Source: Thuidium tamariscinum
Lineage: Eukaryota > Streptophyta > Bryopsida > Hypnales > Thuidiaceae
DNA: 64,000 bases
Assembly (NCBI GenBank): GCA_947034885.2
Contig: OX344751.2
Coordinates: forward strand, 11,656,001 to 11,720,000
Direction: 5' to 3'
This document shows positions 7,864-56,288 of the stretch, one piece after another. Numbering within the stretch: the first letter of the stretch is position 1; each line of letters starts with the position of its first letter. Under the pieces are notes generated by a model that worked only from the letters and a program-made list of their open reading frames with translations, was not told the DNA's origin and searched no databases. Both the position numbers and the translations under genes were made by a program.

Positions 7864-8963
7864 CACTGGGTGATTGCATGAAACACTTGTACTACTGTGT
7901 TGCATCATGTTTTGTGGTGACTAGTTTTTTAGCCATAACTTTTGTTTTTTAGCTCCAAATGATTCAAATTTTCTTAAATGGGTACTCATAACTATTATAC
8001 ACCATTCAGAATTTTTGAGGATTTTTAAAAAATATTTTACTATTTTTAAATAGCCCCCGATTTTTTGTCACATATTCCAATTTAGGGGTTTTTAGTACTA
8101 TTTAGAACCCAAAAAAATGAATTTTGAGCTGAAATTTTGAGAGGATGTTTTCTTAGTAGAATTATAGCTTACCTCAAAAGGAATTTCAAAAATAGTCATT
8201 TTCATGTGGTGTAGAAGTCTACAAAGAGACCTTTTTTCTGCTTGCTTTTTGAAACGTGTAAAACATTTTTTTGGTGATTTTCTTGGTCAAGCCTTATCAC
8301 CAAAAAGTCTTCTCAAATGGCCAATTTTTATTTTTATTTTGAAAAATGTTTTTTATTTTTTATTAATTAAAACATTGAAGTATATATTTTCTTCACCGGA
8401 ATTCTATGTGTTCTATGTCCAAAATTCTAATGAAGAAAAATACAACTTCAACATTTTTATTTGTAAAAAATAGAAAAAACAAATTTAATGAAATCTAAAA
8501 ATTGTCCATTTGAGAAGACTTTTTGGTGATAAGGCTTGACCAAGAAAATCACCAAAAAAATGTTTTATATGTTTCAAAAAGCAAGTAGAAAGAAGGTCTC
8601 TTTGTGGACTTCTACACATCAAAAAAATGAGTATTTTTAAAATTCCTTTGGAGATAAGCTATAAGTCTACTAATAGAATATCCTCTCAAAATTTCAGCTC
8701 AAAATTCATTTTTTTGGGTTCTAAATAGTACTAAAAACCCCACAATGTCAAAGTGTGACAAATTAACAAAATTGAATTTTAAATATCAAATGATTTTTTT
8801 AAATTTGTAAAAAATAAGGATAATAATGTAAGTCAAGATATCTAGGAAGTGTTTTTTTTATTTTGGGCACCTAGTTTTTTATTCAAAAGTTAGAGCCATC
8901 TTAAAGCGGTCAACTCAAAAAAACGCAACAAATAGTACAGGTGTTTCGTGCAATCACCCCACT
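7864..8963. mobile_element. GGGTGATTGC-family foldback element, palindromic copy, TSD CACT
   Basis: The element body is 7868-8959 and is flanked on both sides by CACT (7864-7867 and 8960-8963). The left end reads GGGTGATTGCATGAAACACTT. The right end is its inverted counterpart, with AGTACAGGTGTTTCGTGCAAT then CACCC. Beyond the termini the whole element folds back: the stretch near 8220-8320 (TTTGGTGATTTTCTTGGTCA) recurs inverted near 8510-8600, and the GTCTACAAAGAGACC segment recurs as GGTCTCTTTGTGGAC. No transposase frame is present, so it is a non-autonomous element. The superfamily is not assigned. Confidence 0.85.
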
Positions 8964-10015
8964 ATATTAGAAATTAGTATATTCCATTTGAGTTTTGTAT
9001 ATCATATTTATAATTATTCTCTCTTTCAATTTGTACTATTGGAGAATCTAGTGAACCATTTTTATCTTCTACATTTATCTTATCATTTTTTATTTTTTGC
9101 CATATTAAAAAATATATCAAAACCTAGGATTCACTTTCATTATTATTGTTGGGGATTGGCATAAAGATTGATGGGAATTAATCTTAGAATATTCCAAATT
9201 GGATACTCCACTTTAGTATATTAAATGGTATCATTAGGAAGTCACAATATTGGGCCATAAGCCATAAGATACCATAATCAGTATTATAGCTATTATCTTC
9301 ATTATCTTTACTATAGCATATGCAATCTTGAATAATTTAACAACCTAAGTCATTACATGACAAAAGTGTTATTATATGGAATTACAATTACAACCAGACA
9401 ATCGTCCAAATATGATGAAGTCATAGCTCTTAGCAAGAATATAGGAATGCCAAGATCATGAGCAATTATAATTCTCATCTATTCAAGCAACCTAACCCGT
9501 GTAATAACATGGTAATCAATTGTTCATGCTAAGTTCTTCTTCTTACATGTTGTGACATCAAATGACTGACACCTCCTATACACAAACCATTCAATTCCTT
9601 AGAAAATATTGGCTAATCTCAGATGGATGCAAGTATAGTGATTGTTGTTGTTTCTACTTGCTTGTGTACTTACTTGATTATAGCATGTCTTAAAAGGGAC
9701 ATGCACAAATCTTATCAATTAACTAATCACCTCCAAAAATTAAATAAAACATCTAATTTGTCCACACCCCAAAAAACCAAACCCCCTAGTTTCTTGATAT
9801 GAATATGAAATATGGAACAAAGAGAGATAGAGTAGGTTAGTATTCCCCCACAATAAGACATTTTCTACCTAAGCATAATCTATACCTAATATTTTCAAAC
9901 TTTTTAGACAATTGACAATTGTCATGTTTCAATTAACTAGAACATGTTGGATGCAAGGGTGTGTATAAGAGGGACAACCATTTAAGGACATATGTGTATA
10001 ATGCATGTTCTAAGG
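8964..10015. other. AT-rich intergenic block, no gene seen
   Basis: AT-rich sequence between two foldback elements. No feature is recognised. Confidence 0.5.
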
Positions 10016-10780
10016 TTAACTCCTAAAGGTTCAAACATCATTTTTTTGGCAACATAGCGATGAAAGGCAACTCACTAAGGATGGAGTTTGTATTTTATTT
10101 TTTTAAATATTCATACAACATGTGCCCAAGGAGTAGCTTTAAGGCCCAAAATTTCACAACTATTGACCACATGGTTAAAAAGTTATTGAATGATAATATG
10201 ATATGTCATTTTCATCATTTGGTGGATATCCTAAGTTACAACTTGTAAAACTCCTTCAAAAATCACTCTATTAATAAATGAAAATTTGAAATTGATTTTC
10301 TAGACTTATATAGATATAGATATAGGAAGCTTTGAATCATTCCATTTAATTCATGAGATGAAAGTTATTAAGAGTTTTAATTTGCAGATAGGTATGATTT
10401 TCATAAACTTTATACCTACCTACAAACTAGAATTCCTCATATAACTATCATGTCATTAATCAAAACAAAATCATTCAAAGCTTACTATATCTATATCTAT
10501 ATAAATTTAGAAAATTTATTTCAAATTTTAATTTCTTAATAGATTGAGTTTTGAAGGGGTTGTACAAGTTACTTGGGACATCCAACAAATGATGAAAATG
10601 ACATATCACTCAATAACTTCTTAACCATGTGGTCAAAAGTTATGAAAATTGTTGGGCCTTAAAGCTAATCCTTGAGCACATGTGTGAATATTTCAAAGAA
10701 AAAACAAAAACTCTATCCCTAGTGAGTTGCCCTTGATTGCTATGTTGCCAAAAAATGATGTTTGGACCTTTAAGGGTTAA
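10016..10780. mobile_element. TTAA-flanked foldback element, long palindrome (family 1)
   Basis: Bounded by TTAA at 10016-10019 and 10777-10780. The left end is TTAACTCCTAAAGGTTCAAA and the right end, inverted, is TTAACCCTTAAAGGTCCAAA; both continue into CATCATTTTTTGGCAACATAGC-type sequence. The two halves mirror each other: the stretch with ATAGATATAGATATAGGAAG near 10312 is mirrored by CTTACTATATCTATATC near 10480, and CACATGGTT near 10168 by AACCATGTG near 10623. There is no coding capacity. Confidence 0.85.
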
Positions 10781-15747: not shown

Positions 15748-17849
15748 TCAAGAAATTGTACACCCGCCGCCTCTCTTGAGGTGTGCATTTTCGGCTCGAG
15801 CGTTATCCAACTCCGTTTGAAGATTTTCCAATTGTCTATCGTGAGCTTCTTTATTTTGCCGGAGAGTTTCTGAATTTCCAATCGCTTCTTGAATCTAGCT
15901 CCATTCTTCCGTGCATTGGACTGGGAAATTTCCTCAATCTACATTTCAAGTGAACAACATCAGCGTGTGCATGTGTCCTTGAAGGACGCAACAAGACCAT
16001 ATTTGGCCTCAGACATTGTTGTCTCTCGCACCATTGTGAAGAGCTAGCATATGAAACTTCTTTTTTGTCAAAGTTCTGTTGGGCTCTACTACCAACGCAA
16101 ACAACGTTCCACCCTTGATCTAGCTAATGATGAAAGATTTTTCTCGTTAAATTGTAATTTCCACGATAAGATCAATCAAAGAGGACGATTCAAAAACCAT
16201 CATTTTTTGTCCTGAAAGCGTTAAATAATCAAATCCTCTACCCTAAAACAGCTAAATCAAGTTCTGGATAGACACAACTCTTACGCAACATCTCTTGTTC
16301 GTATTCCTTCCGCTTGAACTTGGATTTCTCTCGCTCCATTCTCAATGCGTGGTCCTAGGGCACAGAAACACAATATTCAAGACATCTCGAGCACGAGTAC
16401 TTCACAAGTTATAGAATTACAATCTTTAGGCTTTTCGATTGCTCTAAAATTCAAAATGATTACTCCAAAAACTTGTGAATGACCCCACTAACGATCTGAA
16501 GCCTTAGTGACAATAATGCAGGTGCTTCAATCCGCCGAAGCACTCTGTCTAGACATTAATTCCTCTGGCTAGAACAAGGTAGCCAACCAAGACAACCATA
16601 CATTGATTTCAAACCAACCAAAAACAGCACTGCTTGTAGTAACTCCCAGAGAATATCAACAGCCTTCTCCTTGAGAGAAAGAGAAGTGTGAGGACAAAAA
16701 TAAAACCTGAGCTGCCTTCAAGGCCTTGCAAGTGTATTGCCGACCACCATTTCTCCCCACCATGTCTACGACTTGGACCAGGCTGTTTCTCTGAGAATCC
16801 AGTGCCACCTGGTTCGTCGTTTCGTTGTCAAAAAGTACCTTCCTGTGCTTACACTTCCTCAGAAAATCCTGAAAAAAAATGTATATGAAAATAGTGTCTT
16901 AGGATGATGATGATTCAGTATATGATATAAACTCAAGATTCATTTAAAACTGCTATAAAACTCATTTTAAACGGAACTCTGGATATGTTGGCGTGAACGT
17001 GCCAACATGAACTCTCATACACAGGTAAAGTAACATGTGTATAAGTGACGAGTTCCGTCCAGGGCCTCTAACAGAAAGTCGTCGATCTCTACAATAGTTT
17101 CAATTGGATTTAGACGAGATCTTACATGGAGGAAACGGGGAGCGCCTTCCAATGCTTGTCAAGGGTTTCATCATCTTTGCTCAGCTGATCTCCTCCTGTG
17201 AAGACAACAACCAAGTACTTCATCACCTCCTTACCAAAGATTCAGTGCAAGCTCTCGGCAGCTTTGATTTCTTCGTCTGTGAACCGAGTTTTTGCTGAGA
17301 GCACCAGCACCAGAGCATTCACTCCACCTTTCGCCAGAAGCAGACAATTCGAGATCTCATGGTTGATTGATTCAGCACTCCGTTAGGCATCACACAGCCC
17401 TGTACCGTGCCGTCAAAGCAAGAAATTGCATTCTCATTACTCGATCCAAACTTTAAGATTATGTGTATTTTGTCGGTTGAAACGGGGGTCGCTTGAAAGA
17501 AGAAGCAAGATGAAATGGGCTAGCTTTTGAATCAACCCTCTATCACAGTCATCAAAGAAAAATCAAGCCAGGTGATGGTTGTGGTCTACAGAATTTGTGA
17601 GTACAGATAAACAGAATGATAGAAAAGGTAAGAAGCTAGATAGAGCCGCTTACCTGGAGTGTCGATGACATGGATTTCACGTTGGTCGGGCAGCGTGGCC
17701 GTCTTGAGATTGCACAGGGAAGTGATACTGCCGCAAGAACTTTTAGAAACGAAGAGTTTGGGGCCCAAGATGCTGTTTCCAGTGGCACTTTTACCGTGCC
17801 CAATTTTGCCAATCAGAACCAGCGTGATCCGTGATGAGGCACTGGCCAT
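15748..17849 (-). pseudogene. AIG1/IAN-type GTPase pseudogene, paralogue of the intact gene at 48527-50889
   Basis: All five exons of the intact paralogue are recognisable in order: 17849-17654 (P-loop GKIGHGKSAT and DTPG), 17399-17126, 16868-16707, 16354-about 16280 and 15938-15748. Exon 2 is broken: TAA replaces the CAA codon a few codons after the G3 loop, TGA occurs after AAESLH, and the exon is 274 rather than 272 bases, which shifts the frame. The exon 4 donor has changed from AAG|GTATGC to AAGAGTTG, and exon 5 lacks about ten codons of the coiled coil. Exon 1 stays open and the terminal Cys-Thr-Ile-Ser then stop is kept, so the decay looks fairly recent. The family comprises GTPases linked in plants to pathogen response and stress. 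No functional product is expected, although exon 1 alone could be transcribed. Confidence 0.88.
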
Positions 17850-18200
17850 GGCTACAAGCAAGTAGATGACAATCAGTCGTGGAGAAGACCAACTACGCAC
17901 CGCAAAAGAAGTTTTGCACCAAGACCTAGCTCCTCACCGATTGACCGATAAGCACTTCATACGCAATCTCTTTGCTGTAAGTAACCAGTTCTCTCACTCA
18001 ATCTTCTAGGTACTCTTCGATCTGATTGATCTCCCTTCCAGACAATTGTATATACCTCAAGTGAACAACGCTTACTGTAATGCTGGTGCAGCGGAATGTA
18101 TCTTATTGTAGACATGAGCAGTGGACAGATTGTCACTTTGAAGCTCCTGCTCAATTGCGGTCAGACGGTAAGTAATTTAAAACGTTGTGATCACTTCCGC
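17850..18200 (-). promoter_or_regulatory. 5' flank of the AIG1 pseudogene, shared with both intact AIG1 genes
   Basis: Just upstream of the pseudogene start, the reverse strand contains CAGCAAAGAGATTGCG and CAATCGGTGAGGAG, which match the 5' region of the intact plus-strand AIG1 gene (48398-48445). Further out, the plus-strand segment at about 18010-18130 (ACTCTTCGAT, GACAATTGTA, GCAGCGGAATG) matches 46279-46400 upstream of the minus-strand AIG1 gene. This looks like a retained promoter and 5'-UTR block from the common ancestor. Confidence 0.5.
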
Positions 18201-18779
18201 AGTAAACCTAAACCCTCCATCGTCAGATTCCTGACAACCAGAAGCCGCCACTACTCAAAGCGAACTCTTAAACAATACATTTGGGACTGCAGTGCAAGCA
18301 AATGCTTTAAAATGTCAGCAAAGTAGACCCAAAATTTGGAGCACCCTCTTAATGAAGAAAACAGCTACGCCGGCTACTCGAATTTCAATAATAACGAAAG
18401 TCGGCCCCGAACCAGAATGCAACGAGACTTAATTAACTGTGCCAACTTGTTGTGCAACGATTGCAGTCTTTTCTTTAGGAAAGACACAACCATCAAATTA
18501 AAGTGCATTGCTCAGTCTTTCTGTGGGAGCTCTCCAAATCACCAGAGTCTTCTCTAATTTTTCAGCGATCAGCCTGTGATCGATGAGTCACACAAGTGGT
18601 ATAGCTTGACTATTGAGTGCGGGAATGGACCTTGAATATTTCTACCCGCAATCTGTACCCATCCTAGTTTGTGACCTGAATTTGGACGTTTATGAAGATA
18701 AAGGGCGGAGATGAATCTGGAAAAAAGTGTGAAACTGCTATAAACCCACTGTAACAATAGACAACATCTGATTATTTTC

Positions 18780-19350
18780 AAGTCCAGTGAAAGATTGATC
18801 TTCAATTAAATATGTTGAGGATTGACTAAGTTAAAGATTGGTCTTTAATTAGCTTGAGGATTGACTGCGTTGGGTGAATATGTTCTTTGATGATCAATTG
18901 CATTGTGTTGTGATTAATTTCCAGATGGAGGAGCGACTAGCCACATTGCAACAATCCGTTGAAAGTGCCAATCCTCAGCTTCAAGAGATGGCCAGAGAAG
19001 CGAGAGAGGCAGAAGTGAAAGCCATGCAGAGGGAGCTGCAACAGCTAAGGCGAGACAACGCCACTATGTCGACAACAGAAAGGCAGCGGCCTTCTTTCTT
19101 TGATTCCACAATCCACACTTCCTCTGTTGAATTAATGTCCATTTACTAATTAGATATGCCTGTAATTGAAGGCAGAGAATACGGACCCATTGAAATGCTG
19201 AGGTAGTTTCATTCTACACCTGTCTAAATTTGTGTTCAGGAGATCAATTCATAAACTGATAAACCTCAGGCCTGCACTTTTCCATTTAGGGGATATTTAT
19301 ATAACTTAGACTTGACTTGCTTAGTGCTCTTCAGGGTTCAGTTCTCTTTA
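18780..19350 (+). pseudogene. Detached copy of the last exon of the minus-strand AIG1 gene
   Basis: The plus-strand exon at 18925-19149 reads MEERLATLQQSVESANPQLQ and continues nearly identical to the last exon of the AIG1 gene ending at 43518. The preceding intron is also almost unchanged (AAAGATTGATCTTCAATTAA, then GACTGCGTTGGGTGAAT). The tail diverges after RQRPSF and ends after a different 14-15 residues. Similarity continues into the 3' flank (TTGTGTTCAGGAGAT, GACTTGCTTAGTGCT). No upstream GTPase exons are present, so this is a 3' fragment. Confidence 0.85.
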
Positions 19351-21157: not shown

Positions 21158-21213
21158 TTTACCTGCAACCAAGCAGTACACACAAACATTGAAACGATCA
21201 TGTAAATTTATAC

Positions 21214-24375: not shown

Positions 24376-25308
24376 TTAACTCCTAAAGGACCAACATGCC
24401 TTTTTTGGCAACATAGCAATTTTGGGCAGGTACGTGTGGCTAGAGATTTCCATATGTTGGAAACAAACTTTAATAGAAGGTGCAGACGAGGAGTATCTTC
24501 AAAGCCCAACAATTTTCGTGACTTTTGACTACATGGTTGAAAAGTTATCGCATAAAACGTTGTTTGTTTCTCAACTCGGGCAGTTTGGGCAGATCAGAAA
24601 AAATCACTTTTTTTGGAAATAAATATTTGAAATTGATTTTATAGATTTATACATACATGAAAAGCTTTTAATCATTCCATTTGGATTAATGAATCAAAAG
24701 TTATGAAGGATTTTAGTTTGCGGGTAGTTATGGATTCTCTTTTCTAAAATAAACTTTGAAGTCCTTTATTTTACTCAATTTTCAATATTTTTGAAAAAAA
24801 ATAAAAGCATTGGGTGTATATTGTTTATTAAAACATTTGAACCATTGGGATTGGCATTTTTCAATTCAATAAATAAATTGTTACCATTTTTGTATTTTGA
24901 ATCATTCTCTACTTCTTTCTTCTTACTATTTTTTTTGTACATGTTGTACAATTCCAAATGATATGAAAATTTTCAAGCAAGTAGACAACTTGAATTGGAG
25001 AATAATTCCAAAGAGTTGCAACCATTTTGGACATTTTTTCATACAAATGTGACCTTCTGAAGTGCAGCTGCCCGGATTTTCGCAATGGAAAAAAAATTAT
25101 TTTTGTAACTTCAAATAATAATATCTTGCAATCTACATGGCGGAAATTTCGGAAATTTTTTCTACATCTTCCCAAACGAGTGCACTAAGAGATCCTATAG
25201 TTACATGTGTCAAAATTTTTTTTTTTTCTGAAATTTGGTAGCTGTCCTAGAAATGACAATTTTGGAGTAGTTTTGGTGGAAACATAGTTGCGGTCCTTTA
25301 GGGGTTAA
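24376..25308. mobile_element. TTAA-flanked family 1 element
   Basis: The left end is TTAACTCCTAAAGGACCAAC and the inverted right end is TTAACCCCTAAAGGACCGCA, with TTAA at 24376-24379 and 25305-25308. The interior shares ATCATTCCATTT then AAAAGTTATGAAGG with the elements at 10016 and 32766. It is non-coding. Confidence 0.85.
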
Positions 25309-25639: not shown

Positions 25640-26149
25640 GCAGAAAACGCAGTGAAAAAGTGAGAAAATGCAGAAAAATGCATTTTTGAGATGAAATTTG
25701 GATGAAATGGTCTTCTAGTAGACTTCTATCTCTCTTGGAAAGGATTTTAAAAAATAATTAATTTTATGTGGTAAGGAGGTCTACAAAGTGAGCTTCTTCT
25801 TGCTTGTATTTTTAAACATACAAAATATGATTTTGCTAGGTTTTTTGGTCTATGACTATTTTCATAGAGTTGTTACAAATGTACAATTTTTTTTTCTGTT
25901 TAATCATTTTAACTATTTTTAACTAATTTCAACATCCAAGTACCTATTTTCTTGAGATTTGGCACTTTTCTAGTTCTCCTACTTAAAGAAATTTTCTATA
26001 AATTTCCTTCAGTGGATCCCTTTGTCTTAAAGGGGTATACATAATCCATATTTTTGAATTAAAAAAATTCTAATTTTAAAATATTGCCAAAAAAATCATG
26101 AGTACTATTGAAAATGCAACAAAATTGACCGTGTATCTTGCAATCACCC
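25640..26149. mobile_element. GGGTGATTGC-family fragment with intact right end only
   Basis: The interior (GATGAAATTTGGATG, GGTCTTCTAGTAGACTTC, GAGGTCTACAAAG) matches the copy at 52135-52867. It ends TGTATCTTGCAATCACCC at 26149. No left terminal repeat was found, so this copy appears truncated. Confidence 0.65.
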
Positions 26150-26722: not shown

Positions 26723-26985
26723 TTGAAATGTATTTTTTACTCTTTTTTTTAGACTAGGACTAATGGATGATTGCAAGAAATACTTCATGTTTTTGGCCAC
26801 AGGACTAATAGTGCTACGCAATATTGGCAATACAGTGCGTCAGCACTATGCCTACAAATCTTAACCATCAATTTTGGGCACTTACAGATCTAGGTCGCGA
26901 GTTCGTACTATGCAATCTTATAGACTTCTACAAAGCACTATTGAGGCCACTACTAGCAAAAAATAGTAGAAAAAGGGGCTATAAA

Positions 26986-27736
26986 CCTGGGTGAATGCAA
27001 AAAAGACTTGTACTATTTAGCGTCACACTTTGAGTGATGGAGTTGTCATCTGCTATAAATTTTGAAGCATTAACTCTTTGAACTTGAAATTTTTATTGGA
27101 CATGGATAACTTGATAGTAATCAAAACGCTTATTTAAAAAAAAAAAAAAATCATTTTATATTTAACTTTAAATTTAGCTAATTTATCACACTTTGTAGTT
27201 TAGAGATTTTTCATATTGTGGAGTACGTAAAATTAATGATTTAGAGATGAGATTTCTAGGGTATATTCCTACACTAGGTAGGCATGTTTCTACCAAAGGA
27301 AATTTAAAAATTCATTATTCTCTTTCTTCTACATGTGTGCTAATAGGCCTCCCTTGCGCGCACATTTTTGATCAATCAAGATGGTTTTCAGATCATTATT
27401 TTAGTGAAATATCTTCACTATAAAATCTTCCCAAATGGGAAATTTTTAGTTTTAAGAAAAATTACTTTCTCTATTTTTTACAAATTAGAAAATGTGAAAC
27501 TATAGTGAAAGTTACAATTTTCATGAAATTATGCACTTTTCTACTTCTCCTACTTAGAAAATTTTCCTATGCTTTTCCTTCCTAGGGTACCTTCTTCTTG
27601 AAGGTATATTCATCAAACATATTTTTCACTATTTTTTAAGATTGATTTACTAATTATACAATACTCCTAAAGAAAAAAATGAGTATTGCGCAAAATGTTA
27701 CGCTTTTCAGAAGGTCTTTCTTGCAATGACCCACCT
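26986..27736. mobile_element. GGGTGATTGC-family element, TSD ACCT, nested
   Basis: The body is 26990-27732, flanked by ACCT at 26986-26989 and 27733-27736. The left end is GGGTGAATGCAAAAAAGACTT; the right end finishes TCTTTCTTGCAATGACCC. Sequence right of it (27737-28267) is the right part of a second family member, so this copy seems to have inserted into that one. There is no open frame. Confidence 0.8.
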
Positions 27737-28267
27737 TTTCATTTTTAGTGATTCAAAAAAAATTCAAAAAATTATTTTAAGAAAATACATTTTTTTAGAC
27801 AAGATTGTATTGACAATATTACAATAAAAATTCCTATGAAACAATTTTTCCCTCTTCATAGCCTTTGTGCAAAAGAAGGTCACTTTGACCCCATGTATGC
27901 AACAAACATGTTGCCAAACATGTTGTGTGCAACAAATATGTTGCTAATTTTTTATGTTAATAATGTTAATAGACCTTCAACTTCTTAAATTTATGGCTTC
28001 AAATTCAAATTTTTGGGTCAAAAATAGGACTAAAATAGTAAAATCCCCCCCAATGGCCAAGGTAGACACCCACTTGGAGGCAGATTAAAAATAGTAAACT
28101 AACTTTTTTTTAAATTGAAAAAATTACTCATCATCTAAAACTTTTGTGTACACCTTCATTCCAAATTTCAAGCCCATAGGACAAAAGATGAAAAATTTAT
28201 GAGCAAAAAACAACTTATTGGAGGTCAAGGGGACAAAAAGAAGGACAAGTGTTTCTTGCAATCACCC
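27737..28267. mobile_element. GGGTGATTGC-family fragment, right part
   Basis: Ends GTGTTTCTTGCAATCACCC at 28267. The interior matches the right half of 39524-40251: GGTCACTTTGACCCCATG, CCAAGGTAGACACCCA, and CAAGGGGACAAAAAGAAGG. A possible left end is GGATGATTGCAAGAAATACT at 26765, with the nested copy in between; the flanks there do not match well (TAAT versus TACA). Confidence 0.65.
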
Positions 28268-30900: not shown

Positions 30901-30909
30901 TTTGAGAAG

Positions 30910-38940: not shown

Positions 38941-39519
38941 TTGTGTTGGAACAATGATCCTTTAATGATTCAGTATGGCACAATACTTTTCATGACTTTT
39001 GACTACACAGTCAAAAATGATTTATATCATATAGTTTTTAGTTTTAAATTGTTAAATAGAACATTATGTCTTCGGAAATTGTTTTTTTTCAATTCCAAAA
39101 CAAAATTTGTAACAATTTTGTATGTTAAATCATATTCTACTTCTTTCTATTTAATATTTTTTGAGCATATGTATGAAATATTTTTTTTCTAAGATTCAAT
39201 ATATGTATTTACAATTTTTTATGATATATTATGAAAAATAATAAGTTGTAGGATCTACACGTTTTGGGGGAAAAAGTTTGAAAGATGAAATCTAACCATT
39301 TGAGAAGAGTTGAAAGTAATTTTTTTTCAAATCCAACAAACCTCATCTTACAACATTAAATGTTTTAAAGGGCCTTTAGAAGACAGTGGATTCTTGGACA
39401 ATGTAAAGGTATGAGCAACGTTTGTTGGTAACTCTTCCATATATTAAGCAATTTGATGTTGCCAAGAGATTGCCACATTAGATGATACTAATGAATGATT
39501 ATTTTAAATTGATTATTAA

Positions 39520-40255
39520 TTATGGGTCATGGCAAGAAACACTTACCAGTTTTGTCTCAAAATGGCTCAAAATAAGTGAGTCCTGTGAGTCGTGTGACCC
39601 TTTGAAATAAATTTTTTTTAAATTGAAAAAAATATAGATAATTTGAAGAGAAATGAGAATATCATGTCTCATGAAATTTAAACCTAAGAAATGTTTTCTC
39701 TAAATGTTATAGACAATGGAAAATACAATGAAAATAGCTCTTTTTTCACTAATTTGGTAAAAATAGTAAAAAAATTCAAAAAATGAAAATGAAAAATCCA
39801 TTTTTCTCCAAGTAAAGTTCTTCATATACCAACAAATTTCATCTTTGGAAAAAATTAATTCTATTCTCTACACTTGCACAAAGTTAGTCACTTTGACGAC
39901 ATGTGGAGGTTGAACAATATATTATTTTCAAAAAATCTCTTTGTTGTATTGTGTAACTTTAGGTGAGGTCCTTGCATGCCAATATTCAGCTCAAAATTTT
40001 CATATTTGGGTCAAAAATAGGACTAAAACCCCCCCAAATGGCCAAAGTAGACACCCAATTGGGGGCAATTTAAAAATAGTAAACTAATTTTGAAAGAATT
40101 GAAAAAATTACACAAAATGTAAAACTTTTGTAGGCACCTTCATTTCAAGTTTCAAGTCAATTGAACAAAAGATGCAAAAGTTATGAGCAAAAAACTACCT
40201 CCTAAAGGTCAAGGGGACAAAAAAAAGGAGAAGTGTCTCTTGCCAAAGCCCTTAT
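39520..40255. mobile_element. GGGTGATTGC-family element, TSD TTAT
   Basis: The body is 39524-40251, flanked by TTAT on both sides (39520-39523 and 40252-40255). The left end is GGGTCATGGCAAGAAACACTT and the right end finishes AAGTGTCTCTTGCCAAAGCCC. The right half matches 27737-28267. No open frame of note. Confidence 0.8.
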
Positions 40256-41528: not shown

Positions 41529-41757
41529 TTAACCTTAAATCACCTCAATCTTTTTTTGAATTTTTGCACATTTTTGTTTATAGCTTTGTACAAATATATC
41601 ATTTACTAGAATTTAATGAATTTGGTCACTAAGGAAGGTTGTCTTTTCTAGATTCAAGTGTTACATTTGATAAATGAGAAGTCAATTGGATGAAACAGTG
41701 CCTTGAAGCCCTCTATTCGTCGTCCAAAATATGGACGTTGGAGCACTTCAAGGTTAA
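41529..41757. mobile_element. 229-bp TTAA-flanked miniature element, copy 1
   Basis: Begins TTAACCTTAAATCACCTCAA and ends CACTTCAAGGTTAA. It has the same length (229 bases) and nearly the same sequence as 54418-54646, sharing GCACATTTT, TTGGATGAAAC, CTTGAAGCCCTCT and ATATGGACGT. Confidence 0.8.
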
Positions 41758-41776
41758 GAAACAAGCAACAACTCAC

Positions 41777-42071: not shown

Positions 42072-42086
42072 TACAACATTATCCCT

Positions 42087-43517: not shown

Positions 43518-46124
43518 TTACTTAAACAGACGAATGATGGGCTGTATGAACTCAAAGAGGGAAGGCCGCTGCCTTTCTGTTGTCGACATAGTGGCGTTGT
43601 CTCGCCTTAGCTGTTGCAGCTCCCTCTGCATGGCTTTCACTTCTGCCTCTCTCGCTTCTCTGGCCATCTCTTGAAGCTGAGAATTGGCACTTTCAACGGA
43701 TTGTTGCAATGTGGCGAGACGCTCCTCCATCTGGAAACCACAACACAATGCAATTGATCATCGAAGAACACATTCACCCAACGCAGTCAATCCTCATGCT
43801 AATTAAAGACCAATCTTTAACTTAGTCAATCCTCAACATATTTAATTGAAGATCAATCTTTCTTAGGACTTTAAAAATCATCAGATATTTTCTACTGTTA
43901 CCAATCATTGTCATTCTCAACTTCGCCAACTCCCAAATTGGCTTCGATTTTGCTTACAGGATTACCACATACTCGTGTATGGATGATATATATCCATCAA
44001 ATATTGGACATTAGTGTAAACAATGCATGCGTTTTCAATGCCTGCTACTAATAATTCAGCTACAATAAGTCCAAGATCGAGCAAGTTCACCTTCTCTTGC
44101 TGTCGACTGTCCTGCTCCTGCTCCAACTGCAGAGCAACTTTCGCCTACAACGTCACATGAAAGTCCGAGTAGCAAAAATTTTAGTCAAGGTTGACCACGA
44201 GATTTGATCATCAAAACCTTGGAGATTTTGCCGCTCAATCTTTCGGTAATCAACGTGAATCATTTCACTCCAACATCAGGTAAGTTTCGACATGATTGTT
44301 AAAGCCTTGATTAGCTTCAACATAAATTGAAGGACACTCACGTACCTTGATTTCCATCTCGCGTTTCAGCTCCTCCTGCTTGAGTTCCTCTTCAATGCAT
44401 CTGTTCTTCTCCTCCTCAATCTTCAACATGATCTCCTGGGACAGCATAGAATGATGCATTCCTGTTAACCGTACGTACGTCAAGATCGTGAGCTTGCTAG
44501 GTCATGGTGCGTTCACTTGTTGTAACTTACATGCTCTTTAATTGGATGAGACATCACGAAGTCCAAACTCTAGTTTGATCGAACCTGTGAATATGCCAAG
44601 ACATGGGCAATCGACCTGGAGTGCCGAAATTATTAGTTACCCCCATAATCTGGGTTTCTATTTAAGATTTTAGACGGAAGGTAAACCTGTGCTTACTTCA
44701 GATGCTGGCTGGTGTATGGCACACCGCCATTTTTGAGGACTAGATCATCAACGACTCGAAGCAGCTCATTTCTTTGGGCATCCTGTTTCGTTGGATCCGC
44801 AGTCTTGTTGTCAAAAGAAAGCTTCCGATGCCCACACCTCCTCAGAAAATCCTGAGAAGCCAAGGTCTGTCATAATTAGAAAGGCGTCCGTTCCTGAAAA
44901 TATGAATGTGCCAAATACTTTCACTCACAAGACCCTATATCCTATAAAACCCTAAAATCTTGAAACCCTAAGTGAGCGAATGATATTTCGTCAGCAGTCA
45001 ACTTTGAACGACAATTTCGTTCACGTAACGGTAATCCATGAAGTGTGTCCGGTACGAGCTTACACAAGGATATACATTCCAGACTTATCTAGCACAATAA
45101 ACATGATTGTCCACATGGGACTGGAATAAAAAACTTCCCCATTGATCACGAGAGTGCAATGCACGTATTCAAACTAACATTCAATTCAAATTAATGCATC
45201 GGACGTCTTACGTGAAGGAACGGGGGAGCTCCGTCGAGGTACTGATCCAGAGTTTGGCCGTCCAGGTGGTCGCCTCCAGTGAACACCACGACCATGTAAT
45301 CCATCACCTTCTCCCCGAAGATGGCGTTCAAGCTTTCCGCAGCTCTCAGTTCATCTTCCGTGCAGCGGGTCCGCCCCGACAGCACCAGAATAATGGCATG
45401 AACTCCACCTGGAGCCAGCACCAAGCAATTCCTGATCTCTGCTTCGATGGACTCCGGAGACCGATTGGTATCACATATCCCTGCTTGCACACCCAGATCG
45501 AGAATCTCACTGCGATTAGAAAGTTCGAAACGCCCAGCTAGGCTAGGTAGTAGGTACATCATGGGATGATCGAGCTTGGGTGACTGGATAAATTCAACCG
45601 AATGGTCCATAATTGACACAACTAGAATTGCGTACTGAAAAATGTCAACTGCATGCTTGCTTCAGGCTTTCAGCATGGTCCAAAATCTGCATGTTTGCTG
45701 TATAATGTTGAGCAAGCATGTACCAATTAAAACGACGAATGTAGATCTGAACTTTAATTGCTGAAGTACGCAGTTAAACCCTTTATATTCTACTAGTGTG
45801 AGAAAAGATATCATTATGCTGGACACACAAGTTATCAAGTAATGATGAGTATAAGCGAAAACCTGGATTCGTGAGAGAAGGTGGTAATATATACTACGAG
45901 TACATGATTGTGCACTAACCTGGAGTGTCGATAACACTGAGGAAGCGGCTGTTGGCCAGAGTGGCGGTCTGCAGATTGCAGATGGAAGTGACACTGCAAC
46001 ACGCGTTGAGGGCCTTAAAAGCTCTGGCTCCCAATATAGAGTTGCCCGTGGCACTCTTGCCGTTCCCTGTCTTGCCCACCAGCACCAGCGTGCGGGCTTG
46101 CAGACACGGCGATTCTCCTCCCAT
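43518..46124 (-). CDS. AIG1/IAN-type immune-associated GTPase with coiled-coil tail (copy B)
   Basis: Model of 338 residues: exons 46124-45920, 45480-45212, 44851-44697, 44615-44585, 44435-44346, 44144-44091 and 43730-43518, all GT-AG and in frame. The GTPase domain shows G1 GKTGNGKSAT (17-26), G3 DTPG (66-69) followed by the AIG1-typical ICDT, the family segment IILVLSGRTRCTEDE, G4 TGGD (136-139) and the FDNKT block near 171-175. The rest is a Glu/Lys/Gln-rich coiled coil (about 220-325). The 31-base fourth exon is the least certain; without it the frame stops. There is no CaaX tail; the C-terminus is FIQPIIRLFK. Residue 2 is Gly, but Pro at position 6 does not favour N-myristoylation. It is transcribed divergently from the AIG1 gene at 48527. 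Plant AIG1 proteins are nucleotide-dependent assembly GTPases linked to pathogen and heat responses; the role here is inferred from family. Confidence 0.82.
44945..44972 (+). promoter_or_regulatory. Two telo-box-like motifs in intron 2 of AIG1 copy B
   Basis: AAACCCTAA occurs twice within 30 bases, inside the intron between exons 2 and 3. It may be chance or a degraded repeat; no function can be shown. Confidence 0.25.
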
Positions 46125-46533
46125 GGCTCGTGCTTAAATCGAAATAATCAGAGTATTGTAAGCAAAGCGGTCGCACAGAACAATTTGAATTCTGTAGGAG
46201 CCCCTTCCCCCAAGCACGAAAGAAGACTACTTGACAATTTAGCTCAGACGTACACAAGAGCTCAATCTTCCAGGCACTCTTCGATATATTTGATGAATCT
46301 GATCGACCTGATTGATCCCCTTCTAGACAATTGTACCTCAAGTTAACGATGACTACGAATGCAACTTAACACTGGCACAGCGGAATGCTTCTCTTGGTAG
46401 ACATGAGCAACATTTGGAGAGAGCGTCTCTTTAATTTGAAGCTTGCAATTGCAGACCTGTAGACGCCTTCCTCTGACAGACCCCCTCCTCCGCCGTCCCT
46501 TTCAGTTAATGATGTAAAACTTGTTGCAGGACG
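46125..46533 (-). promoter_or_regulatory. 5' flank of AIG1 copy B
   Basis: GC-balanced sequence upstream of the copy B start. The 46279-46400 part is shared with the flank of the AIG1 pseudogene (18010-18130). No clear TATA box was chosen. The right limit is the insertion of a TTAA element at 46534. Confidence 0.4.
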
Positions 46534-47398
46534 TTAACCCTTTAAGGTCCGCGCATCCAAAAAGTGGATGCGCCTTGGTCAACCCTGATTGTAACTTTCA
46601 AAATATCCATTATTGGTATATATTTTAAACTAAGAAAATGAAGCTTGACAAGTTTTCTTTCTATTCCATTTTGAAATTTTGAAAAATGTCAAAAATTGAA
46701 AGAATTATTGCAACTGAAAGCTCCATGTGTTTGAATCCAAATAACACAGTATGGTGTGTTTTTTATTTAATATTTTCTTTTTTTTAAATGTATTTTGAAT
46801 TTAAATTATAAAATTATATTTTTCATTCTATCCTTGATTTATAGTAAAAATTACAAATTTTTCTAATATATTTTCTAGTTGATATAATTTTATTTCCACC
46901 TTTAGCTTAAGAAAATCACAATAATTTTATTTTTCCATAAAAATTATTGAAAAAAATAGCATAAATATAAAATGCACTTTTCCACTAGTGAAAAATATGA
47001 AAATTTTATACACCAATTAAATAAAAGGATAAATTTGGTTTGATAGTTGAATTTGACTTCAAGGTCTTTGTTGTGGCTGTTTTGGATGTAAAAAATAAAA
47101 TAACCAATTGAAAATTTTTCACACTAATCTCCATTTCTACTTGTACCACTTGTCAAAAATTCAAATAATTTGGATTGTTTTTTCTATTTTTGCTTATTTA
47201 TGTTCAAATTTTGCAACAAAAATGATAACAATTATAATTTTTGACGAAACAAATTGAAATTTCTCATAGTGATATACAATTCTTAGTTTCAAGTAATAAA
47301 AATATAATATTGTTGTTTGAACACAATTTAGAAGGCCAAATTTAGTTCAGACATGATGTTTGACCATTTCACAATGGATGAAGACGTTTAGGGGTTAA
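46534..47398. mobile_element. Uninterrupted TTAA-flanked element between the divergent AIG1 genes
   Basis: The left end is TTAACCCTTTAAGGTCCGCG and the inverted right end is TTAACCCCTAAACGTC; TTAA is at 46534-46537 and 47395-47398. It is the intact reference copy for the interrupted element at 32632-35310. It has no coding capacity and shares its right TTAA with the next element. Confidence 0.85.
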
Positions 47399-47649
47399 AT
47401 CCTAACAACGAAGGTGGGCCCAGTAGGGTGGGTTTCGGATTCTCCGGGGTGAAAGTGAAAAAAAAAAGCCCCCTATTTTATGCCGTGTCTAGGGCATGTT
47501 GTTCGTCTTTTTCACCTAATTTGGGGTCTGTGATTGCAAATAAGAATTCAGAATTTGAAAAAATATATATTTGAAAAAAATAAAAAAATTCTGCGTTTTC
47601 CCCGATGTAAATCCACCCTGCCGGACCCATCCTCGTTGGTAGGATTTAA
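47395..47649. mobile_element. 255-bp TTAA-flanked MITE abutting the previous element
   Basis: About 40-base terminal inverted repeats: TTAAATCCTAACAACGAAGG on the left mirrors TTAAATCCTACCAACGAGGA on the right, and both continue into GGGTGG/GGGTGGAT. TTAA is at 47395-47398 and 47646-47649. Confidence 0.8.
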
Positions 47650-48103
47650 CGTCCTGCAAACTTGTTACCATAGTGTAGTCGTTTATACAGGGGTACAGAT
47701 ATTGCTTGAAAAATGGGTATGTACAGACATATCTAGAAAATCGCGCTTTTTTCCAGCCGACCTAAGTTTAGACTTCCAGCGAAACCCAAGCCAGGCAACT
47801 ACGACCCACAAGAACAATGAGGGGCTTGGCATTTCCTCAGCCGTGGATCTCCCGCACGAAACAAGGAACAATGAAGATCAATTGCTTTCATGCTCAATTT
47901 TTTACCGGGGTTTTTTCAGTATCTTCAAATTCCAGCCGGTTTTTTCCCCAAGTCTGCCGGCTAACAATTTGTGAATTAACTTGGCGGTTCTCCCCCAACA
48001 TTGCAGAGCAATGCTTTTGAATTTGACGGTTGCTTCTTTCCAGAAAAAAGAAAGAAAAAGACTGCGCAATCACTGCTCAACAAGTCGGCTCAGTCACTGC
48101 ATG

Positions 48104-48110
48104 TATTTAA
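48104..48110 (+). promoter_or_regulatory. Possible TATA element of AIG1 copy A
   Basis: TATTTAA in ATGTATTTAAATCGG, about 420 bases upstream of the ATG at 48527. Weak, and the distance would imply a long 5' UTR, perhaps with an intron. The 5' region 48398-48445 is conserved with the pseudogene flank. Confidence 0.25.
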
Positions 48111-48526
48111 ATCGGGGCCGAATTTTGCTACCATTTCAATAATCATACATCCTCACGTCGTAATTGTTGAATTCATATAAGTAATGTGAATTAATTCCTT
48201 CCATCTCACACCTGCTCAAAGCATCTGCCCTCACATTGATCCTAACTCTCAGTCTCTTCTATAATTTGACAGGCTCTGTCCTGGCTTGGGGTGTTCATTC
48301 AAGCAGTTTGCTCTTGACATGTGATTGTTGACTCTATCCAGGTTGCGAGAATCGCTTAATTGTGAGGAAGATTGATTGAGAGAGCTCATCACTCACAGCA
48401 AAGAGATTCCGCACGGCGTGCTTATCGAGCAGTCGGTGAGGAGGTCTTGGTGCGTAACATCTTCTGCGGTGAGTCGTTACTGCTTTTCGAGTTAGACCGA
48501 GTGTCAGACGTTAGCTGCTGATAGCC

Positions 48527-50889
48527 ATGGCCAGTGCCTCATCACGGATCACGCTGGTACTGGTGGGCAAAACCGGACACGGTAAAAGTGCGACTGGAAA
48601 CAGCATCTTGGGCTCCAAACTCTTCGTTTCGAACAGATCCTTCGGCAGTATCACGTCCGTCTGCAATCTCAAGACGGCCCCGCTGCCCGACCGACGTGAA
48701 ATTCACGTCATCGACACTCCAGGTACGTGGCTCTTCTAAGCTTCTTGCATTATTATCGGTAAGCTTTCTGTATTGGTGAATCCTACCACAATCAGTACCT
48801 GGCTTGAATTCGATTAGGTGACAGTGTTGAAGGTTGATTCAAACGCTAGCCGTGCCATCTAGCTTCTTGTTTCAATCGACCCTCCGTTTCAACCCGAGCA
48901 TAAGTCCATTGTATATTGATTGAGTAATGACAATGCAATTTCTTGCTTTGATGGCACGGTGCAGGGCTGTGCGATACTCAACGGAGTGCTCAATCGATCA
49001 TGCATGAGATCTCTAATTGTCTGGTTCTAGCTAGAGATGGAGTGGATGCTCTGGTGCTGGTGCTCTCAGCAGCTGCTCGGTTCACAGACGAAGAAATCAA
49101 AGCTGCCGAGAGCTTGCACTTAATATTCGGGAAAGAGGTGATGAAATACTTGGTTGTGGTCTTCACAAGAGGAGATCAGCTGGATGATGGCCAGACCCTT
49201 GACAACGACTTGCAAGGCGCCGACGGTTTCCTCCATGTAAGATTGAAACTAGAAATCGACGACATTCTGGATGACATTGTCATGTTAGAGGCACTGGGCG
49301 GGAGTTGTGTATTATTTTACCTGTGAGTTTTCATGTTGGCACGTTCATATATGCCTACAGAGTTACGAACAGATATTTCGTTAAAATGGCGGTATTCCTA
49401 CGCCATTTTTCCATTCAATTTCTAGGATCGGTATAGATTTCAGACTTCAAGGTCTAGAAATCTAGGAGAGGTGTACAGTTTAGACCACATGGTCTAAACC
49501 TGAAAATGCCAAGTTTGTGGCATACCGCCATTTTAACGAAATATCCGTTTACGTTAAAAATGAGTTTATATAGCAGTTTTGAATGCATCGTTTATAATTT
49601 TACATCGTGAGTTTATAATTATATTGTATATATGGTAGCATCAATATAAGTCACTGATTGCATTTACATTTTTTTTCAGGATTTTCTGAGGAAATGTAAC
49701 GATAGAAAGGTTCTATTTGACAACAAAACGACGAACCCGGTGACCCTAGAGTCCCAAAGAAGTAACCTGATCCAAGTCATTGACGACATGGTGAGGAGCA
49801 ACGGTGGTCAGCCATACACTTGCGAGGCCTTGAAGGCAGCTCAGGTTTTATTTCCCTCCTGACTCGCACATCTCTCTCTTTCAAGGAAAAGGCTGTTGAC
49901 ATTCTCTGGGAGTTACTACAGTGAGTGCTGTCTGTTCGGTTTAAAGTCGATGTGTGGTTGTCTTGGATAGCTGTTGTGGTCTGAGTAGTTAATGTCGCTC
50001 GAGGCAGAAGGTGTTGCGGTGGATTGAAGCACCTGTAGTACCGACGTACTGTCAATAAGACTTTACTTAGTTACCGGTGTCGTTCCCAAAGCATTTGAAA
50101 CTGTAGCCTTTTTTAACCACAGAACAATCGAAAGGCCTGCTAATTGTAATTCTGTTTGTTAAGTACTCGTGCTCGAGATGTCTTGAATTTTTGTGTTTCT
50201 GTCCGCTACTTAGGATCACGCATTGAAGATGGAGCAGGAGAAATCCAAGGTTAAGCGGAAGGAATACGAACGAGAGATGTTGAAAAAGGTATGCGTCTAT
50301 CCAGAATTTGATTGAGGTATCTTTTCGGGTAGAGGTTTTGATTAACGCTTTTGAACAGCACGAAGGATGATACTTAGATTTGAATCTGACCTCTTTGATT
50401 GATCACATCGTGGACAGTAAAATTATATATTTTTACGAAGAAAATCATTTCCTCGTTTGCTATATCGATCAAGGAATTGAAGGAACATTGCATGCGTTGG
50501 TAATAGAGCCCAGTAGGACTTTGACATACAAAAAGTTTAATATGCCAAGTGAACTCTTCACAATGGTGCGAAAGACAACCATGTCTGAGGCCAAATAAGG
50601 TCTTGTTGCGTCCTTCAAGGACACATGCACACGCTGATGTTGTTCACTTGAAATGTAGATTGAGGAAATTACTCAGTCCAATGCACGGAAGAATGAAGCT
50701 GCAATCCAGGAGCGATTGGAAGCTTTGGTGAAGTCCATGGCAGAAACTAATTCAGAAACTCTCCGACAAAATAAAGAAGCTCATGATTTACAAATGGAAA
50801 ATCTTCGAGCAGAGTTGGATAATGCTCGAGCCGAAAATGCACACCTCAACAGTAGAAGTAGCGGCGGATGGCAGTGCACAATTTCTTGA
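48527..50889 (+). CDS. AIG1/IAN-type immune-associated GTPase with coiled coil and CaaX-like tail (copy A)
   Basis: Five GT-AG exons, 48527-48722, 48965-49236, 49680-49844, 50214-50288 and 50659-50889, give 312 residues. G1 is GKTGHGKSAT (14-23), G3 DTPG (63-66) followed by LCDT, then the AIG1-specific LVLVLSAAARFTDEE segment (95-109), G4 TRGD (133-136) and VLFDNKTT (167-174). Residues 212-300 are a charged heptad-like coiled coil (KMEQEKSKVKRKEYEREMLK). The last four residues are Cys-Thr-Ile-Ser, which fit a CaaX box with Ser at X, the farnesyl type, so membrane attachment is likely but inferred. The start matches the pseudogene paralogue's start. Family role: GTP-dependent assembly on membranes, and immune or stress signalling in plants. 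A MITE sits in intron 2, and a decayed 3' duplicate follows at 53.2 kb. Confidence 0.92.
49366..49552. mobile_element. MITE in intron 2 of AIG1 copy A
   Basis: Inverted arms of 24 bases: GATATTTCGTTAAAATGGCG at 49372 (continuing GTAT) is mirrored by CGCCATTTTAACGAAATATC ending at 49545. The corresponding intron of the pseudogene (about 16985-17010) runs straight through from GAGTTCC to GTTTAAAATGAG, the empty state. Exact ends and target duplication are uncertain. Confidence 0.75.
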
Positions 50890-52130: not shown

Positions 52131-52871
52131 CAGAGGGCAATTGCATGAAACACTTGTACTATTTTCCGTCACACGTCTCATGCTGATCTGTTTTTTGACC
52201 ATAACTTTTGCATTTTTGCTCCAAATGACTCAAGATTTCTAGAGAAGGTACTCATAACTATCATACAGCTTACATGAATTTTTGATAATTTTCAAAAATA
52301 GTTTGATACAAAAATAGTACTAGTGATTGAATGTCACATATAACAATTTGGAGGTTTTTAGTACTATGGAATACCTTTTTTTAATGATTTTGAGATGAAA
52401 CTTGGATGGGATGGTCTTCTACTAGACTTCTAGCTTTCCACACAAGGATTTTCAAAAATAGTTAATTTTATGTCATGTGGAGGTCTACAAAGAGAGCTTC
52501 ATTCTGCTTGTATTTTGAAACATATAAAATATTATTTTGGTAGGTTCTTTGGTGAATGACCATCTCCATAAAGTTGTTCCAAATGGCCACTTTTTATTTT
52601 TTGTATTTACTTATTTTTACTATTTTTCCCTAATTAAAACATGAAGGTATGTATTTTCTTGAGGTTTGGCACTTTTCCAGTTCTCCTACTTAGAAAATTT
52701 TCCTATACAATTCCTTTTGTAGTTACCTTTGTCTTAAAGGTGTATATATAAGTCATATTTTTTTTTAAATTTAAAAATTAATTTTCTAATTAAATAGTAC
52801 TCTAGAAAAAGTCAAGAGTACTATTGCAAAACGCAACAAATAGTACAGGTGTTTCGTGCAATCACCCCAGA
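52131..52871. mobile_element. GGGTGATTGC-family element, TSD CAGA
   Basis: The body is 52135-52867, flanked by CAGA (52131-52134 and 52868-52871). The left end is GGGCAATTGCATGAAACACTT; the right end is ACAGGTGTTTCGTGCAATCA then CCC. The interior matches the left half of 7868-8959 and the fragment at 25640-26149. It lies between AIG1 copy A and its decayed 3' duplicate. Confidence 0.85.
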
Positions 52872-53199
52872 TTATATATGTGCTACTTAAAATGTCATTG
52901 TCGTTAAAGTTGTCCACCTAATTCGCATGATCTTTCCAATACATATTGCGATTATAGCGGTACTCACTAATTGAGTGAATACCAACTGAAGATTAAGACG
53001 TGAAACCTAATTTGGTAGTTGAAACAATACCGAATCACCTGAGTGTGTGCAGAACTTGGTAAACGTCAATACGTTCGCTAGGCTGCTCCGTGCTTAATTA
53101 CATTCTATGCTCTGTGCTAAAAAATTTTGATTTAATTTCAGGGTGCTAAGTTTATAATCGAATTTTCCAGAGAGTAATTTTATTTTCCATGTTTGATCA

Positions 53200-54250: not shown

Positions 54251-54417
54251 GGACTGTGATGCTAAACGAGTGAGCGCATGGAGGCTCTCAAGGTTTGGTC
54301 AACGCCTGTTGACTTAATGGTTGAGCGTGCGGACTGGCACGTGTCCCCCTCTGATCATCCAGATTTGAATTCATAACAAAAATTCTCAGTGTGCTCCTGC
54401 TAGTATTGAACTCTAAA

Positions 54418-54646
54418 TTAACCATTAAGCGTCTCAATCCTTTTTTGAATTTTTGCACATTTTCGCTTATAGCTTTGTACAGATATATCATTTACCAGAA
54501 TTTAATGAATTTGGTCATTAAACAAGGTTGTCTTTTCTAGATTCAAATATTACATTTGATAAATGAGAAGTTAATTGGATGAAACCGGGCCTTGAAGCCC
54601 TCTGTTCATCGTCCAGAATATGGACGTCGGCGCGCTTCAGGGTTAA
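54418..54646. mobile_element. 229-bp TTAA-flanked miniature element, copy 2
   Basis: Begins TTAACCATTAAGCGTCTCAA and its inverted right end is TTAACCCTGAAGCGCGCCGA, so terminal inverted repeats of about 14 bases are visible. Same length and layout as 41529-41757. Confidence 0.8.
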
Positions 54647-55555
54647 GTGAGATTTTGGAGAGTCTCCAAGCTTTTCCAACCAAACTATATTATGGAGTTG
54701 GATTGTCAATTCCCAACCACCCCAATTTTTGGAAATACAAACTAAATTACTCAAAGAGGATCCAACTTTCCTACCTTGGGTTCTTGGGTTCTTTTTGAAA
54801 AATCAAAAGCTTATGGGTTAAGTTTGAATTTTCTTTGAGAAACCAAAACTGATCCTTCCTAGATGATGGTATGCCCGAGCCCATTTTTTTTACTTTTTGA
54901 GAAAGTGCCAAGATGCCGATCACTTCAAATTTGGTGAAGCATTGTAGTTTTACATACATCTATCTTTTGGACTTCAAAACATTTTATCATCATTTTCATA
55001 CACTTTTTCATTCAAATTTGGCAACTTCATCCATATTTTAAAAAGATTACTAGAAAATTTCTGGCAAAAAAAGATTAGTACTCTCTTTTATCTGGGAAAA
55101 AAAGACATTTATTTTGAAATGGTGCAATTTGGTCCCATGGTGTCAAAAAAAAGGGTTGGTATGCCCATAAAAATGGTCCAACCCCCCTGTCTAGCAACTG
55201 ACTGTTCCTTAGGAGCCGGTTAGAAATTTTATGAATGGTCCACCGGGTTAGTGGCACTGCTGGGTTGGGGCTCAGCGGTACTATTGAGCTTGTGAGTGTG
55301 AGCCTGTGAGCGTAGAGCAGGGACTCTGTGAGCACAGAGCTTAAAAATTTGAAGAAGCATTATAAAACTTAATTTTATTCATTAAAATTGATTCCATCTT
55401 AAAATTTGAATCAAATTTTTTATTTCTAATAAATTTTAGAACCTACTTTTGTAGACCTATTACCATGGTTATGTTGAAATTGGATGAAGATTCTAATTTT
55501 CAATCTTACTTAAACGTATACATTACAAAAATGAAGAACTCAATTGATATGAAAG
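54647..55555. other. Intergenic block, no gene seen
   Basis: Short frames only. A patch near 55260-55345 is rich in GTGAGC/CTGTGAGCGT-type short repeats, like the GCTCACAAGTTCACAAGC patch near 57080. Confidence 0.4.
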
Positions 55556-56288
55556 ATGAGGGTGATTGCAAGAATGACTTGTCCTATTTGTTGTCCCCTA
55601 GGCTTCGGACAGGTGGTTTTTTGCTCATAACTTTTGCATTATGTCTTTGTTTGTCATGAAATTTCGAATAGAGGTACACACTAAAGTTCTTGACATTTGG
55701 TAATTTTTTGAAATTTTTTAAAATTATTTTGCTATTTTAAAACTGACCCCGATTGGATGTCTACCTTGGCCATTTTGAGGTGTTTTAGTACTATTTCCAA
55801 CCCTAAATTTCAAATTTGAAGGTGAAAATTGGGATACAAGGACTTTTACTATAGTTACACAAGCTTGTGAAGAGATTTTCTAAAAATAGTAAAGTATTCA
55901 CCTTCCACATGTGCTCAAAGTGCACTACCAAGGTACACTTGTAGAGAATACAAAATAATTTTTTTGAAGATGAAAATTGGCAAGAAGAAGCAACTGTAAG
56001 TTGGGAAAAATGGATTTTTTTTTGAATTTTTGAATTTTTTTACTATTTAAAAAAAATTAAATTCCAAACTACCTATTTTCTTGTATTTTTCATCACTCTT
56101 TGAGAGAGCATAACTTTTTGAGCTAAATTTTTCTAAGTTAGAACTTTCATCTACATACTATTTAGAGTGTTCTTAACAGTATCCATATTTTATTTCATTA
56201 AAAAAAATTGATTCCAAAAGTCACAGTACTCCAATACTAAGGCCATTTTGAGACAAAACCATGAAGTCATTCTTGCAATCACCCATGA
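55556..56288. mobile_element. GGGTGATTGC-family element, TSD ATGA
   Basis: The body is 55560-56284, flanked by ATGA (55556-55559 and 56285-56288). The left end is GGGTGATTGCAAGAATGACTT and the right end is AAGTCATTCTTGCAATCACC then C, an almost exact inverted pair. No transposase frame is present. Confidence 0.85.

What the first reader, a model, noticed from the sequence alone, without database searches (positions are those of the whole stretch)
7864..56288. Second foldback family (GGGTGATTGCAAGAAACACTT) with 4-bp target-site duplications
Five copies have exact 4-bp flanking duplications: CACT (7868-8959), ACCT (26990-27732), TTAT (39524-40251), CAGA (52135-52867), ATGA (55560-56284). The lengths are 725-743 bp apart from the palindromic 1092-bp copy. 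Four-base duplications at unrelated sequences plus GGG-starting ends fit none of the common plant superfamilies (hAT 8, Mutator 9, CACTA 3, Harbinger 3, mariner TA).
Basis: seen in the sequence. Interest (0 to 1): 0.75.

Follow-up and report, generated by a model that had tools for sequence, protein, structure and literature searches.

The report
Plant mini-transposons duplicating four target bases
These repeats are short non-coding hitchhiker transposons, very numerous in an unnamed land plant, and each insertion duplicates exactly four bases of its target; the enzyme that moves them was not found.

Summary
All five reported copies lie between GGG...CCC inverted ends and exact 4-bp repeats (one start is off by one: 26989, not 26990). 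In two samples from the same genome, 40 of 53 and 21 of 34 TIR pairs have exact 4-bp duplications, against 1.4 and 1.0 from shuffled flanks; none matches at 5 bp or more. Two paralogous empty sites show a single copy of the 4-bp target. Conservation stops at the GGG boundary. The 21-base TIR (up to 2 mismatches) occurs 14,857 times, its reversed control 0 times.

These are MITEs, mostly 710-760 bp, plus a palindromic 1.09-kb subfamily (40 scored copies, 96-100% to the window copy); only that subfamily is a true foldback. Most likely they are moved in trans by a transposase making 4-bp staggered cuts. Sola, with 4-bp duplications and known from a moss, is the best candidate (about 45%), but no transposase or autonomous copy was found, so membership is unproven. 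The genome search gave no answer to any request, which cut that hunt short. A new member of a known kind.

The parts
7868..8959 (.). 1,092-bp palindromic copy, duplication CACT at 7864-7867 and 8960-8963; arms 8064-8403 and 8423-8762
   Evidence: 40 scored copies genome-wide at 96-100%
26989..27732 (.). 744-bp copy, duplication ACCT at 26985-26988 and 27733-27736, inserted in the older copy 26765-28267
   Evidence: empty site against L024/L025, which are one element
26765..28267 (.). older copy of 755 bp without its insert, split by 26989-27732; no matching 4-bp duplication (TAAT / TACA)
39524..40251 (.). 728-bp copy, duplication TTAT at 39520-39523 and 40252-40255
   Evidence: 39 other scored copies at 92-94%
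52135..52867 (.). 733-bp copy, duplication CAGA at 52131-52134 and 52868-52871
55560..56284 (.). 725-bp copy, duplication ATGA at 55556-55559 and 56285-56288
25671..26149 (.). 5'-truncated copy ending in a TIR at 26129-26149

Best explanation
These are MITEs: short, non-coding, non-autonomous DNA transposons with inverted ends of about 30 bp. A transposase made elsewhere recognises the ends, cuts at the GGG/CCC edge and joins the element to a target cut with a 4-base stagger; filling the gaps gives the 4-bp duplication. Shown: the ends, their sharp edge, the 4-bp duplications, two empty sites with one target copy, nesting, high copy number, several subfamilies. Inferred: cut-and-paste by a DDE/D transposase acting in trans. 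Inferred and weaker (about 45%): that the transposase is of the Sola superfamily. The confidence given is for the MITE reading without Sola.
For: Duplications 40 of 53 and 21 of 34 against 1.4 and 1.0 expected. Sharp edge: at most 0.19 bits at each of 20 outer positions, 2.26 bits at position 1. Empty sites: 78% over 619 positions, no gap at the ACCT junction; L096, 95% over 3.1 kb, single ATCT; L095 also aligns across in one piece, its junction was not displayed. 14,857 TIR places, 0 in the control. Uniform lengths and subfamilies.
Against: No autonomous copy or transposase was found, so movement in trans is inferred. 13 of 53 and 13 of 34 pairs lack an exact 4-bp duplication; some are wrong pairings or old copies, not each was explained. 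The first sample is partly biased, because rank copies by likeness to a window copy, and the other sampled loci all lie on contig C1.
Confidence: 0.94

Rival explanations
1. The transposase is of the Sola superfamily (Sola1- or Sola2-like), and these are Sola MITEs.
For: Sola has 4-bp duplications, TIRs of 11-1124 bp and a DDD transposase, and is reported from Physcomitrella (passages of PMC10741241) and from Capsicum (table passage of PMC9033089). Insect MITEs have been filed under Sola1-3 by duplication and TIR (passage of PMC5199201). Our targets prefer A/T at the outer positions, 37 and 36 of 43 (copies picked for a 4-bp match).
Against: No Sola transposase was available to search with and none was seen. 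Sola2 of Dictyostelium has AWWT targets and 12-13-bp TIRs (passage of PMC3627910), whereas our inner positions are A/T in only 31 and 26 of 43 and our TIR is about 30 bp. The source on plants says Sola seems uncommon in flowering plants.
Confidence: 0.45
2. The transposase belongs to an undescribed superfamily that makes 4-bp staggered cuts.
For: None of the common plant superfamilies fits by duplication length; the 15-base TIR core is in no held paper; a survey of 207 plant genomes sorts MITEs into five superfamilies and one special group (passages of PMC12550479).
Against: Sola already explains a 4-bp duplication; no protein evidence either way.
Confidence: 0.22
3. A common plant superfamily (Mutator, hAT, PIF/Harbinger, CACTA, Tc1/mariner) with an unusual duplication length, or another known superfamily with 4-bp duplications (Ginger, Chapaev-type).
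For: Such superfamilies are abundant in plants; one hAT-like family gave 139 matches in this genome.
Against: No pair of 53 and none of 34 matches at 5 bp or more, and the excess is at 4 bp only. Of 20 loci of the hAT-like family, only L094 has our TIR at 5 or fewer mismatches, as an inserted MITE; 9 others have a single site at 6 mismatches. Its right ends read CACTG (left ends not fetched). Ginger and Chapaev ends (TGT..., CAC...) are recalled and do not match GGG.
Confidence: 0.2
4. The 4-bp repeats are chance in an AT-rich region.
For: Short matches are commoner here than 1 in 256.
Against: Shuffled flanks give 1.4 of 53 and 1.0 of 34, against 40 and 21 observed; two empty sites.
Confidence: 0.005

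Closest known systems
Sola superfamily (Sola1, Sola2)
   Same: 4-bp target duplications; TIRs within the reported 11-1124 bp range; reported from a moss (passages)
   Different: No DDD transposase seen; 30-bp TIR and only outer-position A/T preference, against 12-13 bp and AWWT in Dictyostelium Sola2 (passage); ends not compared with Repbase Sola ends
MITEs of the five common plant superfamilies
   Same: Short, non-coding, inverted ends, very many copies of uniform length
   Different: 4-bp duplication, and longer than many MITEs (mostly 710-760 bp)
Foldback elements
   Same: The 1,092-bp subfamily is nearly all one hairpin (-510 kcal/mol as RNA, no shuffles at that length)
   Different: The other subfamilies have ordinary short TIRs; Foldback duplications are about 9 bp (recalled)

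Membership tests
MITE | inverted ends with target duplications of constant length | tested here: met
   40 of 53 and 21 of 34 at exactly 4 bp
MITE | short, non-coding, very many copies of uniform length | tested here: met
   14,857 TIR places; lengths cluster at 710-760 and about 1,092 bp, with a few at about 960-1,080; no long ORF noticed inside the copies (ORF list, only the 70 longest of 113 shown)
Sola superfamily | 4-bp target duplication | tested here: met
   feature from a passage of PMC10741241
Sola superfamily | DDD transposase of Sola type | tested here: inconclusive
   no autonomous copy found; no Sola protein or model to search with; genome search unanswered
Sola superfamily | first 11 bases match known Sola ends with at most 1 mismatch (Repbase rule for non-autonomous elements, passage of PMC4455052) | not testable with these tools
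   Repbase sequences are not held
hAT | 8-bp duplication (recalled) | tested here: not met
   0 of 53 and 0 of 34 at 8 bp
Mutator | 8-11-bp, mostly 9-bp duplication (recalled) | tested here: not met
   0 of 53 at 8 to 11 bp; 0 of 34 at 8 bp
PIF/Harbinger and CACTA | 3-bp duplication (recalled) | tested here: not met
   3-bp matches 1 of 53 and 1 of 34, expected 1.5 and 1.0
Tc1/mariner | TA duplication | tested here: not met
   2-bp matches 8 of 53 and 5 of 34, expected 5.3 and 4.1
piggyBac, Kolobok, Sola3 | TTAA target (piggyBac: passage of PMC5199201; others recalled) | tested here: not met
   31 different 4-mers among the 40 duplications, none TTAA; none among the 21
Foldback element | most of the element is a long inverted repeat | tested here: inconclusive
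   met by the 1,092-bp subfamily, not seen in copy 55560-56284; other copies not folded

The most novel reading that the evidence does not exclude
A superfamily of cut-and-paste transposons distinct from Sola, with GGGTGATTGCAAG ends and 4-bp target duplications, whose MITEs number in the order of ten thousand in one land-plant genome and have spawned a palindromic, hairpin-forming subfamily that could feed small-RNA silencing.
Probability: 0.22. Interest if true: 0.7.

Novelty: new member of a known kind. Interest (0 to 1): 0.42.

Why it matters
A survey of 207 plant genomes sorts MITEs into five superfamilies and one special group (passages of PMC12550479); a 4-bp family of this size could be misfiled or missed there. 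It points to a transposase, perhaps Sola, that is rarely reported in plants. The palindromic subfamily (40 scored copies at 96-100% to the window copy) suggests fairly recent movement and is a natural source of hairpin RNA; both are inferences.

Tried and rejected
Autonomous partner. The one pair of exact TIRs seen 2.3 kb apart (L053) is a cluster of MITEs. Of 40 further exact TIR hits on C1, 34 have a partner (6 or fewer mismatches) within about 1.1 kb. Of the other 6, whose inward 3.5 kb was fetched (L114-L119), one (L116) has its partner at 1,628 bp with duplication TTAG and carries an unrelated insert of about 860 bp; 5 show no partner. Ten ORFs of L114-L119 gave no Pfam match at E 0.1; their other ORFs were only read by eye. 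L119 keeps about 90 bp of MITE-like sequence; the stretch inward (L119-L120) holds a gene with a sub-threshold RING match and two unnamed relatives. I take it as a truncated end beside a gene, not as an autonomous copy.

Other tests. PF07592 (ISAzo13): no match in the genome, but none in the 14 controls either, so it says nothing. The hAT-like ORFs beside MITEs in L007 and L037 were tested as a transposase source and rejected. The 15-base TIR core is in no held paper; other paper searches. Species: a land plant by its BTB/ankyrin gene; bryophyte is a guess, and PMC13182070 (a liverwort, passages) does not settle it. PMC7466625 (Physcomitrium transposons) has no mention of Sola, TSD, MITE or TIR in its held main text.

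Full report
What is there. The window is a 64-kb piece of contig C3 of a 363-Mb, 19-contig genome. Its BTB gene places it among land plants: the best named hits are seed plants at 57-64% identity, the best unnamed ones reach 80%. All five reported copies were confirmed with exact 4-bp flanking repeats; one start is corrected to 26989. Two further members exist: an older copy 26765-28267, split by the 26989-27732 copy and without a matching repeat, and a truncated copy 25671-26149. Together they cover 5,238 of 64,000 bp.

More than chance. The window holds 13 TIR-like sites with 5 or fewer mismatches, and all are ends of these seven members; three more sites at 6 mismatches are not, which is what base shuffles give (2, 0, 4). 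Genome-wide the 21-base TIR with up to 2 mismatches occurs 14,857 times and 0 times when read backwards. If the window's ratio held everywhere (8 such ends for 7 copies), this would be about 13,000 copies and 2-3% of the genome; that is an extrapolation from one window.

Duplication tally. First sample: 57 TIR pairs from the window and loci L001-L052; 4 were dropped for short flanks; 40 of 53 have exact 4-bp duplications, expected 1.4 from shuffled flanks. It is partly biased, since 18 of those 52 loci were ranked by likeness to a window copy. Second sample: of 40 further exact TIR hits on C1, the 34 with a partner within about 1.1 kb; 21 of 34 have exact 4-bp duplications, expected 1.0. In neither sample does any pair match at 5 bp or more. 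The 40 duplications are of 31 kinds. In 43 copies picked for a 4-bp match, the outer positions are A/T in 37 and 36, the inner ones in 31 and 26.

Edges and empty sites. Conservation is at most 0.19 bits at each of 20 positions outside the ends and 2.26 bits at position 1. The nested copy 26989-27732 can be compared with a paralog of its host element (L024/L025, one element): the joined flanks align through a single ACCT without a gap there (78% over 619 positions). A 725-bp copy in L094 sits in a hAT-like element; its paralog L096, 95% alike over 3.1 kb, has one ATCT and no insert, and L095 aligns across in one piece. So the target is duplicated on insertion and the edge is exactly GGG/CCC.

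Kinds of copy. At 70% identity, 42 elements fall into four groups of 22, 10, 8 and 2. In small samples, seven copies of the 728-bp group are 93.8-96.4% alike pairwise, five of the 722-bp group 77.1-92.5%, nine of the palindromic group 96.3-99.2%; those of the 728-bp and palindromic groups were drawn by likeness to a window copy, so youth is overstated. The palindromic type is a subfamily, not one odd copy: 40 scored copies at 96-100%, the window copy included. Its halves pair at 78-84% and the RNA folds as one long hairpin of -510 kcal/mol (no shuffles at that length).

How it works. Shown: ends, edge, 4-bp duplications, empty sites, nesting, many copies. Inferred: a DDE/D transposase acting in trans cuts at the ends and joins them to a target cut with a 4-base stagger. 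No transposase or autonomous copy was found in what could be examined.

What it is nearest to. [quoted passage not shown] the 4-bp length fits none of those five as commonly described (lengths for all but Tc1/mariner recalled). Sola elements have 4-bp duplications, a DDD transposase and variable ends, occur in Physcomitrella and seem uncommon in flowering plants (passage of PMC10741241), though Sola1 is also listed for Capsicum (table of PMC9033089). Sola2 of Dictyostelium has AWWT targets and 12-13-bp TIRs (passage of PMC3627910), which these copies do not share. The original Sola paper is not held. Hence Sola is the best candidate at about 45%: these copies work like Sola MITEs in the duplication they make; that they are such is not shown.

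Verdict. The likely answer is a large, partly young MITE family of a known mechanical kind, with an unproven link to Sola.

Noticed in passing
window 15773-19108 and 43547-50852: Long inverted paralogous segments (pairs of 69-265 nt at 78-96%); ORF 17589-17933 (-) looks like an AIG1/IAN-type GTPase (recalled motif, not scanned).
   Followed up: no
window 63314-63528: Near-perfect palindrome: arms of 106 nt, 95% complementary, 3 nt apart.
   Followed up: no
window 10240-10570, 24598-25223, 32994-33618, 34197-34313, 39016-39160: Another AT-rich repeat family in direct and inverted copies, without the TIR of this finding.
   Followed up: partly
L037:1884-2726, L007, L094-L113: An abundant hAT-like gene family (139 matches), several loci with open frames of 650-890 aa; right ends read CACTG; ORF of L037 has no Pfam match at E 0.1. 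The hAT label is recalled.
   Followed up: partly
L116:26-1653: A MITE of this family carrying an unrelated insert of about 860 bp; about 10 bp of MITE sequence is repeated on both sides of it, which hints at another transposon type.
   Followed up: partly
L120:1359-2111: Gene with a weak RING-type match and only two relatives, both unnamed, among 5.8 billion proteins.
   Followed up: partly
L015:2272-2913; L042:2891-4090; L041:3-713: ORFs beside MITEs with a weak STAND-NTPase match, a protein kinase match and a VCPO second-domain match.
   Followed up: no
window 41529-41758 with 54418-54647; 58923-59062: A 230-nt direct repeat at 89% identity, and a 70-nt tandem pair at 93%.
   Followed up: no
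window 953-2282: Plant ankyrin + BTB gene on the minus strand, used to place the genome among land plants.
   Followed up: yes
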